Origin: a virus
Virus record (IMG/VR): IMGVR_UViG_3300010375_000049
Coordinates: 1 to 24,338 of that record
Reading direction: 5' to 3' (one strand)
DNA: 24,338 nt
The position numbers and the translations under genes were made by a program. Of this stretch, positions 16,507-24,338 are shown in pieces. Position 1 is the stretch's first letter; every line of letters begins with the position of its first letter. Under the pieces are notes generated by a model, which saw only the letters and a program-made list of their open reading frames with translations, had not been told where the DNA came from and ran no database searches.

Positions 16507-16728
16507 TTACAGTGCCGGGAGTCCTGCCGCCACGCGCTCAGCGTTCAAAACGTCAATGGTTTCTTTGTCGAACTGCTGCGCTGTTGCCTGAAGGCTTGCC
16601 ACGTTATCAGCCACTACAGGGCCAAGCGTGTCAATGGAGCGAATAGCGTTCAAATCTTCCACGCCGATTGCCGTTAGAGCTGCCAAGAGTGCAGCCAGTT
16701 TTAATGCTACGTCAGTAGGTAATGCCAT
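16507..16728 (-). CDS. Small Ala/Leu-rich helical protein
   Basis: 73 aa; AAGGAGAATTTC before the ATG. The first 23 residues are Ala/Leu helical (MALPTDVALKLAALLAALTA), more amphipathic than membrane-like, and the remainder (DTLGPVVADNVASLQATAQQ, then DVLNAERVAAGLPAL) is helical too. Same strand and close spacing to its neighbours. Function unknown. Confidence 0.65.
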   Translation of the reverse strand: MALPTDVALKLAALLAALTAIGVEDLNAIRSIDTLGPVVADNVASLQATAQQFDKETIDVLNAERVAAGLPAL

Positions 16729-22019: not shown

Positions 22020-22153
22020 GCTTCCTGCTTTCTTGGATCATCTCCGCCATATTTAAGAAATTCATACCACGCTGCCACAGCCAGAAACTCTTCAGCCGTC
22101 AAAAGTTTGAGATTCTTTCGACAAGCCGAACGGAATAGCTCCATGAATTTCAT
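22016..22153 (-). CDS. 45-aa hypothetical protein
   Basis: ATG at 22153 overlaps the TGA of the 313-aa gene (ATGA), and its own TGA overlaps the next ATG, so three genes are chained here. The sequence (FMELFRSACRKNLKLLTAEE, then FLAVAAWYEFLKYGG) is helical with aromatics. Not recognised. Confidence 0.5.
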   Translation of the reverse strand: MKFMELFRSACRKNLKLLTAEEFLAVAAWYEFLKYGGDDPRKQEA

Positions 22154-23091
22154 CTCTTCTCTTCCGGCCCCGGCTGAGCGAGTGCGCCTACTAAGTGCGA
22201 ACGTAGAATTGCAGCAGCGGTTTTTATCATCCTCTCAGCAACGTATTGCTCTGGGGGAACGTATGTGCAATATGGGCCTGCCAGTTTTGCGCTCTCGCCC
22301 TCAAGTGCAACAAAAATCTCCCGCGCTATCTCTTCCACCTGTGGCGTCCCTTGGGCCGCGCCAGAATAATCCCTGCACCCTTTGCAATCAGGATGAATAT
22401 GGAAGCGATACAACTGCTCTGGGTGAAGAATTAAGTGAGCAATTTCACAGACGTACATTTCCGTGGGCTGCGTTCCTGCAACGGATGGAGCGGCATCAAA
22501 TTTGCATCTTCCGGTGCAATCGCAATCAGGTCCTTCTTTTACACACTTTGCCAGCGCGGAGGCCGTCTCCGTTGCTTGGGTGGGCGCGTCCAACAATTCA
22601 GCTAATATTTCGTCCATTTCTTCTTGCTCGGCAGCGGAAGGGGAAAGCCTTACGGCATCCAGTTCTCTGAATCGCTCTAACAATTCGCGCACTTTTTCAG
22701 GCAAGCACAGCTCAACCTTGGGCGCGGATGGCTCAGAGGGACGCGCTGCAACTCCTGCCTTGCGCATTTCATCAACATCCACTCCTAACTTCTTGGCTAG
22801 GTCGCGGTCTGCCCTATCTTGGTGAGACGCAATTACTCTGCGTGCGTGTTCGTCGAGCGCATTCTTGTCGGGCGGCTGCTCCCCTGTGGATGCTCCGCCT
22901 GAGATGGGCTCGTGGCTTTTGTAGTTATTGTTTTTGCAGGAATAATGGCCGTCTGGGGCACGCCAGTAATCGGTTTTAATGATAACTAGATCGCAATGCC
23001 TGCACCTGCTGCTATTCTCCACGTGAAGCTCGGCTTTCGGCGGCTCCTGAGCTGATGAAGCAAGCTTTTCGGCCTTATTCAAATCACGCAT
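22150..23091 (-). CDS. Zinc-binding multi-part hypothetical protein
   Basis: 313 aa from the ATG at 23091, with GGAG 8 nt upstream. A longer frame (to 23193) would lie inside tnpB and is not accepted. Three Cys/His groups are visible: CRHC with a later YSCKNN (about residues 30-53), CVKEGPDCDCTGRC (about 206-219) and HPDCKGC (about 236-242). In between are a charged helical part (DEHARRVIASHQDRADRDLA, then VRELLERFRELDAVRLS) and an end part (VEEIAREIFVALEGESAKLA) common at the tail of accessory phage proteins. It overlaps the tnpB 3' end by 13 bp. Function unknown. Confidence 0.6.
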   Translation of the reverse strand: MRDLNKAEKLASSAQEPPKAELHVENSSRCRHCDLVIIKTDYWRAPDGHYSCKNNNYKSHEPISGGASTGEQPPDKNALDEHARRVIASHQDRADRDLAKKLGVDVDEMRKAGVAARPSEPSAPKVELCLPEKVRELLERFRELDAVRLSPSAAEQEEMDEILAELLDAPTQATETASALAKCVKEGPDCDCTGRCKFDAAPSVAGTQPTEMYVCEIAHLILHPEQLYRFHIHPDCKGCRDYSGAAQGTPQVEEIAREIFVALEGESAKLAGPYCTYVPPEQYVAERMIKTAAAILRSHLVGALAQPGPEEKR

Positions 23092-24182
23092 TGGACATCT
23101 CCATTCGTTACGATTTGAGCGGCTCTTCCAGCCGCAAGAATGACCATCGCTGAAACAACATCCCGCGATGCGAACAGGCCGCACTCTGGGCAATCGTGCC
23201 AGCGGTCACTTAATTTTTTGGGTACAGATGCGCCACAAATGCAGGTTTGTGACGTACCTCTTGGATTCACTCGTACCAGCGTCCTACCAGCATCTGCCGC
23301 TTTGTAGGTGAGCATGTTTACGAATGCTGTCCATCCTGCATCATGGATTGATTTGGCCAGCCGCGATTGCGCCAGCCCTTTGACGTTCAAATCTTCAACT
23401 GCAATGAGTTGGTTCCCGTTAACAATCTGCCGGGATAGCTTGTGATGGAAGTCGCTGCGCTGGTTGCGAACCTTAACGTGATGCCGCACCACTTGCGCCA
23501 CAGCCTTCGCCCTGCGCTTGCTGCCACGTTTACAGCGTGCGAGATGCCGCTGCGCTCTGCGGAGCTTCGCTTGGGCCTTGCGGAAGAATTGCGGGGCGGC
23601 TACGGTGCTGCCATCCGATAACGCGATGAAAGAGGACAAGCCAACATCAATCCCACACTCGATATTTACCGCTGGCAGGGTAATAGTCTGGTATTCGACT
23701 GCAAATATTACAAACCACTTCTGGCCCTCACGCTTGACTGTGGCAGTTTTAATGGTGCCATCCACCGGACGGTGAAGATTGATCTTGATAAGCGAACATC
23801 CTTGAAGGCGAAGGCGGTCGCCATACACGCTGAATCCGCTGGTGCGCTTCGGAAACGTGATGCTGTCAAAGCGCCGAACGGAGCGAAAGCGCGGGAACCC
23901 ATAGCCGCGCCGGAACAAGGCAGAGTAAGAGCGATCCAGGCGCTTCAATATTTCTTCAGCGCAGTTGAAATTGGGGATTTTTAGAAGCCCCTGCGCTCTC
24001 AGGTATTTCAGTTGACGGGACTGCTCATAGAAGCTTACGGTTTTCCGGCAACACTTCCATGCGCTCTTGCGCTCCTCAAGGGCTGCATTGTACAGGTCGC
24101 ACGCTTCGCGCAACTGCTCCGTGAGCCATGCGGCCTGCTCTTGATTGGGATAGAGGCGGTACTTTAAACTTCTGATGGGCAT
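23079..24182 (-). CDS. tnpB: TnpB-family RNA-guided nuclease (IS200/IS605 OrfB), operon-embedded
   Basis: 367 aa from the ATG at 24182 (PIRSLKYRLYPNQEQ, the usual TnpB start), with GAGGGG before it; a GTG at 24278 would add 32 unconserved residues. N-terminal helical/WED-like part, then the RuvC-type nuclease split: D179 in CGIDVGLSSFIALSDG, E263 in LIAVEDLNVKGL and D341 in FASRDVVSAMVIL. The zinc finger has CIC (314, 316) and CPEC (331, 334), so the first knuckle is CxC rather than CxxC. The usual DRDxNAA motif reads SRDVVSA; the catalytic D is kept. TnpB uses a guide RNA from its 3' end to cleave DNA. No tnpA transposase is seen. Possible promoter TATACT (minus strand, 24255-24250). Confidence 0.85.
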   Translation of the reverse strand: MPIRSLKYRLYPNQEQAAWLTEQLREACDLYNAALEERKSAWKCCRKTVSFYEQSRQLKYLRAQGLLKIPNFNCAEEILKRLDRSYSALFRRGYGFPRFRSVRRFDSITFPKRTSGFSVYGDRLRLQGCSLIKINLHRPVDGTIKTATVKREGQKWFVIFAVEYQTITLPAVNIECGIDVGLSSFIALSDGSTVAAPQFFRKAQAKLRRAQRHLARCKRGSKRRAKAVAQVVRHHVKVRNQRSDFHHKLSRQIVNGNQLIAVEDLNVKGLAQSRLAKSIHDAGWTAFVNMLTYKAADAGRTLVRVNPRGTSQTCICGASVPKKLSDRWHDCPECGLFASRDVVSAMVILAAGRAAQIVTNGDVQCVI

Positions 24183-24192
24183 CGGCAACCCC

Positions 24193-24315
24193 TCATTCGG
24201 GTTGGTGACATGGACTGGAATCGTGTTCAAGCACTTTTCCAGTTCGCCCAGTATACCGCAATTTGCTTGTGCTTCCACCTATTTTTCGGCCCTCGTTCGT
24301 CATCTTCTTTTCCAT
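24193..24315 (-). CDS. 40-aa ORF upstream of tnpB
   Basis: ATG at 24315 overlaps the TAA of a partial upstream frame (TAATG); a second ATG four codons in has AAAAGAAG before it. The product is basic/polar (TNEGRKIGGSTSKLRYTGRT, then GKVLEHDSS). The TGA stop overlaps the tnpB ribosome site (AATGAGGGG), 10 nt before the tnpB start. Probably a real small operon gene, or one shortened by tnpB insertion. Confidence 0.4.
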   Translation of the reverse strand: MEKKMTNEGRKIGGSTSKLRYTGRTGKVLEHDSSPCHQPE

Positions 24316-24338
24316 TACCCCATTCCCCCAGCGTCAGA
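24315..24338 (-). CDS. 3' end of an upstream gene entering from the right edge
   Basis: Only seven codons and a TAA (SDAGGMG, stop) are inside the window. The TAATG join with the next frame suggests the operon continues to the right. Too short for any identification. Confidence 0.3.
   Translation of the reverse strand, partial: SDAGGMG

What the first reader, a model, noticed from the sequence alone, without database searches (positions are those of the whole stretch)
23079..24338. TnpB without visible transposon ends inside a phage operon
tnpB has 10 nt to the upstream ORF, its ribosome site overlaps that ORF's stop, and it overlaps the downstream gene by 13 bp. An IS200/IS605 element usually has non-coding ends, and the guide RNA is made from the 3' end. 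Here the guide would be read out of the 313-aa gene. The three catalytic acids are present, so it may be a domesticated phage nuclease, perhaps for competition with other phages or for host-gene targeting.
Basis: partly seen in the sequence, partly recalled or inferred. Interest (0 to 1): 0.7.

Follow-up and report, generated by a model that had tools for sequence, protein, structure and literature searches.

The report
Phage TnpB, guide inside neighbouring gene
A gene-cutting enzyme that normally belongs to a jumping DNA element has become an ordinary, long-kept phage gene, and the RNA that should aim it appears to be read partly out of the next phage gene.

Summary
A full-length tnpB (ATG 24182, 367 aa; RuvC D179/E263/D341 and zinc ribbon intact) sits 10 nt after a 40-aa ORF and overlaps the 313-aa gene by 13 nt. 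No tnpA is present. Only three lineages of this clade were found (window; L002, 87% aa; L003, 76%). They form one clade (support 100/100) inside a family whose other members carry an ordinary omegaRNA end (GAGAAGCC-hairpin-GGAGTGGTCAC). In this clade that end is gone, yet dN/dS is about 0.07-0.13. In L003 the gene overlaps phage genes on both sides.

The guide RNA seems remodelled rather than lost. Stems 1-3 persist with compensatory changes (8 of 27 pairs; 0/500 shuffles). A short stem 4 and an invariant GCTTCA follow; GCTTCA is complementary to the stem-1 loop, as in the ISDra2 pseudoknot. Sequence conservation ends there. The predicted guide (window 23054-23039, minus strand) therefore lies in codons of the 313-aa gene, whose start codon and ribosome site lie inside the omegaRNA fold.

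Most likely this is a domesticated, nuclease-competent phage TnpB. Its target is unknown. Small sample, no RNA data: a new variant of a known kind.

The parts
23079..24182 (-). tnpB, 367 aa, RuvC triad D179/E263/D341 and zinc ribbon intact
   Evidence: dN/dS 0.07-0.13 within the clade
24193..24315 (-). 40-aa upstream ORF, probable remnant of the 100-aa gene intact in L002
24245..24255 (-). -10-like TATACT (TATAAT in L002) in the leader; the sigma-70 scan found no promoter here
   Evidence: weak
24215..24242 (-). leader hairpin kept in L002 with compensating changes; possible left-end remnant or 5' UTR element
   Evidence: two sequences only
24180..24194 (-). ribosome site GAGGGG and ATG of tnpB
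23119..23135 (-). omegaRNA stem 1, loop GGAAG (5' strand of the pseudoknot)
   Evidence: two compensatory pairs
23079..23118 (-). omegaRNA stems 2 and 3, overlapping the tnpB stop and the start of the 313-aa gene
23089..23102 (-). ribosome site and ATG of the 313-aa gene; the ribosome site is paired in the stem 3 arm
23062..23076 (-). short stem 4 (3 bp, covarying)
   Evidence: found unprompted by RNAalifold
23055..23061 (-). omegaRNA 3' tail GCTTCA+T; CUUC complementary to the stem-1 loop GAAG
   Evidence: invariant in three relatives amid diverged flanks
23039..23054 (-). predicted 16-nt guide CAGCTCAGGAGCCGCC, inside the 313-aa gene
   Evidence: conservation stops about here; inferred
22150..23091 (-). 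313-aa downstream gene; mosaic, unknown function; counterpart in L003 (305 aa) has DUF551

Best explanation
A TnpB-omegaRNA unit from the IS200/IS605 superfamily was captured by phages and is kept as an ordinary operon gene. It has lost the Y1 transposase and the ordinary right end. The enzyme keeps its catalytic residues and is under purifying selection (shown). The omegaRNA is still made from the 3' end of the tnpB message, in a shortened form: stems 1-3, a 3-bp stem 4 and the tail GCUUCA, whose CUUC pairs with the stem-1 loop as the ISDra2 pseudoknot does (inferred from covariation in three sequences). The guide is the next ~16 nt and lies inside the coding sequence of the following phage gene, whose start codon and ribosome site lie inside the omegaRNA fold. 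Processing of a transcript to omegaRNA and translation of the downstream gene would then compete (inferred). The particle most likely cuts or binds a DNA target that benefits the phage, such as competing mobile DNA or a host locus (inferred). The target is not identified.
For: Intact domains and acids. dN/dS 0.07-0.13 at dS about 0.7-2.5 among three members that share the altered 3' end. One clade, 100/100, nested among relatives with the canonical end. No tnpA in the window, G001, G002 or G003, whereas canonical sister G006 has one. L003 tnpB overlaps genes on both sides. Model R1, built only from canonical relatives, has one hit in the window (21.1 bits, E 0.002) and in G001-G003 hits only the cis site. 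Structure count: 97.5% of cells paired vs 86.9% shuffled; 8 pairs with both-side changes vs 2.7; slid controls fall to 33-46%. GCTTCA invariant while the flanking spacer is 38-56% and the guide 11-39% identical. Stem-1 loop differs from that of the canonical relatives (GGAC/GGAU there, GGAAG here) on the same branch on which the tail differs (GGUCAC there, GCUUCA here); ISDra2 has the same GAA/UUC pseudoknot (PMC10097598). L002-L003 synonymous change is lowest over the omegaRNA part (0.86 vs 0.46 identical codons, rank 1 of 253). A second, divergent tnpB in G001 also has a downstream gene that starts across its stop and runs through an omegaRNA-like end.
Against: Only three distinct sequences. 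The canonical GAGAAGCC and GGAGTGGTCAC blocks are absent, and in the CM alignments of the window, L011 and L012 the stem 4 region is skipped. The pseudoknot never varies within the clade. The mini-stem has only 3 pairs. The window does not share the synonymous-site suppression seen for L002-L003. No RNA reads, TAM, target or activity data. Downstream gene segments shared by the window and L002 could keep some of these nucleotides for protein reasons.
Confidence: 0.58

Rival explanations
1. The guide end is truly lost. TnpB is kept for another activity, for example binding the remaining stems to control translation of the downstream gene whose ribosome site they contain, or working with guide RNAs supplied in trans by other elements of the cell.
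For: The canonical tail and long stem 4 are absent. The ribosome site of the next gene is paired in the retained stem 3 arm. Purifying selection persists.
Against: A conserved GCTTCA with loop complementarity and a covarying mini-stem stands where a tail should be. No trans omegaRNA was found in G001-G003, though those records may be incomplete.
Confidence: 0.25
2. An ordinary IS605-type remnant that landed in a phage and is decaying; selection signals reflect its past as an active element.
For: TnpB genes are common in phages (554 phage records match). tnpA is missing. The upstream gene is partly deleted in the window.
Against: Three lineages at dS about 0.7-2.5 share the altered end and still have intact genes with dN/dS about 0.1. 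Covarying RNA stems. Overlaps with phage genes on both sides in L003.
Confidence: 0.1
3. A still mobile IS200/IS605 element with a variant right end ending at GCTTCA and a left end in the 96-nt leader, moved by tnpA in trans.
For: The tail resembles IS605-type right ends that carry TCA near their end. A leader hairpin is shared by the window and L002 with compensating changes.
Against: L003 has no leader at all. The same neighbours occur upstream and downstream in the window and L002. No Y1 gene in these records.
Confidence: 0.07

Closest known systems
ISDra2 TnpB-omegaRNA (IS200/IS605; PMC10097598)
   Same: Same protein domains and catalytic acids; omegaRNA order stem 1, 2, 3, 4, tail; GAA loop / UUC tail pseudoknot
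   Different: No tnpA, no recognised ends; short stem 4; guide read from a coding phage gene
Canonical sisters in phage and virus contigs (L013-L015, L021-L035, L041; Thermus phages phiLo, TSP4, T72)
   Same: About 37-58% identical TnpB; same omegaRNA plan for stems 1-3
   Different: They keep GAGAAGCC, a long stem 4 and GGAGTGGTCAC or a near relative; L041 also keeps tnpA
TldR (phage-borne TnpB-derived RNA-guided repressors; PMC13418256)
   Same: Phage-borne, immobile, tied to non-transposon genes, guide RNA next to the gene
   Different: TldR has lost RuvC catalysis; here the triad is intact and no flagellin neighbour was seen
Cyanophage Mic1 gp49 (PMC11237433) and Lalka phage TnpB beside CRISPR-like arrays (PMC11437467)
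   Same: Phage-borne TnpB with catalytic residues (Mic1); the Mic1 isolate with broken gp49 had a far lower burst size
   Different: No shortened omegaRNA or guide inside a neighbouring gene is described in the passages read; no CRISPR-like array was noticed here

Membership tests
TnpB RNA-guided nuclease | OrfB_IS605 and TNB domains | tested here: met
   closest natural solved chains are ISDra2 TnpB
TnpB RNA-guided nuclease | RuvC D-E-D triad | tested here: met
   D179, E263, D341
TnpB RNA-guided nuclease | omegaRNA scaffold at the 3' end of tnpB | tested here: met
   CM hit E 0.002 and covarying stems 1-3
TnpB RNA-guided nuclease | 3' tail with pseudoknot followed by guide | tested here: inconclusive
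   canonical tail absent; GCTTCA candidate
TnpB RNA-guided nuclease | guided DNA cleavage | not testable with these tools
   no experiment
IS200/IS605 mobile element | tnpA (Y1) in the element | tested here: not met
   PF01797 absent from the window and G001-G005; elements without tnpA do occur, and records may be fragments
IS200/IS605 mobile element | left and right ends | tested here: inconclusive
   ordinary right end absent; no leader in L003; possible hairpin remnant in the window and L002
IS200/IS605 mobile element | empty-site junction | tested here: inconclusive
   no tnpB-free relative of the locus found
TldR repressor | loss of RuvC catalytic residues | tested here: not met
   triad intact
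Cas12f CRISPR effector | CRISPR array | not tested
   PADLOC Cas12f models match, as is expected for TnpB relatives; no repeat search was run and none was noticed in the sequence read; the contig ends 156 nt upstream of tnpB

The most novel reading that the evidence does not exclude
The first codons of a mosaic phage gene serve both as protein code and as the guide of a domesticated nuclease, so that recombination of that gene between phages re-aims the nuclease, and omegaRNA folding decides whether a transcript yields guide RNA or downstream protein.
Probability: 0.15. Interest if true: 0.85.

Novelty: new variant of a known kind. Interest (0 to 1): 0.56.

Why it matters
TnpB is the ancestor of Cas12, and how it leaves its transposon to become a host or phage tool is an open question. 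Described phage cases such as TldR lost nuclease activity. This clade appears to keep the nuclease, drop the transposon ends and move the guide into a variable phage gene. It offers a compact omegaRNA to test and a candidate for RNA-guided competition between phages.

Tried and rejected
First view that the omegaRNA was simply truncated: set aside in part after the ISDra2 structure paper pointed to the stem-1 loop / tail pseudoknot and RNAalifold had found the mini-stem unprompted; it remains the main rival. GTG 24278 start: rejected in favour of ATG 24182, because the 32 extra residues are not shared with the wider family. Rfam gave no match to this RNA. Relatives of the 313-aa protein: none found. 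One DNA-pattern scan failed through my own one-base spacing error and tests nothing. tnpB-free relatives through TerL: the accessory region is not shared. Guide targets: the L003 guide matches 15 nt in the coat gene of nine related P22-like contigs, apparently one locus; by rough count this could be chance at a few per cent, so it is a lead only. The window guide has no close match outside its own locus in held sequence, and the L002 guide recurs (14 nt or more) only at window 23008-23022, in the same downstream gene. The block shared by the window and L002 there (GTGGAGAATAGCAGC) may be a recombination linker of that gene, not a kept guide.

Full report
What is there. The window is a 24.3-kb linear virus record with P22-like portal, scaffold and coat genes. 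At its high end, on the minus strand, lies a complete tnpB: ATG 24182 to stop 23079, 367 aa, with OrfB_IS605, TNB and HTH domains. The RuvC acids D179, E263 and D341 are conserved across relatives and the closest natural solved structures are ISDra2 TnpB chains. The 40-aa ORF seems to be the remnant of a 100-aa gene that is whole in L002.

Relatives. Three lineages share this clade: the window, L002/L011 (87% aa) and L003/L012/L018 (76%). They lie in phage records that differ from the window outside accessory genes. G001 and G002 share only tnpB and a few small genes with the window, plus one short weak match, and G001 has an integrase and a DnaB-like helicase. The gene has therefore probably spread with phage accessory cassettes. 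A tree of 20 TnpB proteins puts the three in one clade (100/100) inside a group whose other members carry tails ending GGAGTGGTCAC. Canonical sister G006 also has a Y1 tnpA next to tnpB; the window and G001-G005 have none. In L003 a 59-aa gene overlaps the tnpB start by 8 nt and a 305-aa gene overlaps its end by 8 nt, so there is no non-coding end on either side. dN/dS is 0.12-0.13 (window-L002), 0.10 (window-L003) and 0.07-0.09 (L002-L003), at dS about 0.7-2.5. The altered 3' end is shared, so selection continued after it arose.

The RNA. Twelve canonical omegaRNAs give a clear consensus: stem 1 with loop GGAC/GGAU, stems 2-3, GAGAAGCC, a long stem 4 and GGAGTGGTCAC, with 20 of 30 pairs showing both-side changes. 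A covariance model from these sequences alone gives one hit in the window, 23138-23040 minus (21.1 bits, E 0.002), and in G001, G002 and G003 only the same cis site. Stems 1-3 are matched; the stem 4 region is skipped and the tail does not match. In the three clade members RNAalifold, given no hint, predicts the same topology plus a short third helix. Counting that structure with the pseudoknot added gives 97.5% paired cells against 86.9% in shuffles, 8 pairs with both-side changes against 2.7, and a collapse to 33-46% when partners are slid.

The pseudoknot and the guide. In ISDra2 the stem-1 loop GAA pairs with tail UUC, a few nucleotides before the guide (PMC10097598). In canonical sisters the loop GAC/GAU can pair with GUC of GGUCAC. 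In this clade the loop reads GGAAG, and 16-17 nt after stem 2 all three have GCTTCA, directly after the short stem 4. The spacer before it is only 38-56% identical and the next 18 nt only 2-7 of 18 identical. Finding CTTC at one offset in all three never occurred in 200,000 shuffles. That test was framed after seeing the motif and treats the sequences as unrelated, so it overstates the case. The best reading is a compact omegaRNA ending in GCUUCA+1, with the guide 23054-23039 in the window. Both lie inside the downstream gene. Its ATG aligns with an ATG-containing stretch of the canonical omegaRNA (TCATGCGTAGCCTGA), so its start may have evolved out of the omegaRNA. Its ribosome site is paired in the stem 3 arm. 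TnpB is known to process its own mRNA into omegaRNA (PMC10278001), so guide production and translation of the downstream gene may compete; this is inference.

A second case. G001 also holds a divergent TnpB (L106 19614-18436, minus). Its RuvC-II motif reads FSSDN where others read VEDLN, so the glutamate is lost: a TldR-like candidate. Its downstream 103-aa gene starts 11 nt before the end of that tnpB and runs through a tail-like GGGAGATCAC. The arrangement of a guide inside the next gene may therefore have arisen more than once; the RNA end there was read by eye, not by a model.

Against over-reading. There are only three sequences, no RNA data, no TAM and no target. The L003 guide matches 15 nt in a coat gene of related P22-like phages, which rough counting puts within reach of chance. 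Known cases: phage TnpB is common (554 phage records), TldRs show phage domestication of inactive forms (PMC13418256), and a spontaneous Mic1 isolate with a broken phage TnpB had a much lower burst size (PMC11237433). The finding is thus a new variant of a known kind.

Noticed in passing
L106 18436-19614 minus (G001, IMGVR 3300009093_000082): Second TnpB in the same phage record as L002: RuvC-II glutamate replaced by serine (TldR-like), with a 103-aa downstream gene that starts across its stop and runs through its omegaRNA-like end and predicted guide.
   Followed up: partly
L066 3927 (also L067-L072, L074, L083): 15-nt match of the predicted L003 guide to a coat-gene stretch (VYAVNPQSRQST) of P22-like phages related to the window.
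   Followed up: partly
L048 (G005 60087-60170) and L031 486-521: Canonical omegaRNA-like sequences with no tnpB match found beside them.
   Followed up: no
window 16507-16728 minus: 73-aa protein with no PHROG match, 100% identical in G001, an otherwise largely different phage: recent cassette exchange.
   Followed up: no
window 22150-23091 minus; L002 4097-4453; L003 4085-5002: Downstream genes are mosaics: the window and L002 share short near-identical DNA blocks (e.g. coding SEPSAPKVE) in otherwise different proteins.
   Followed up: partly
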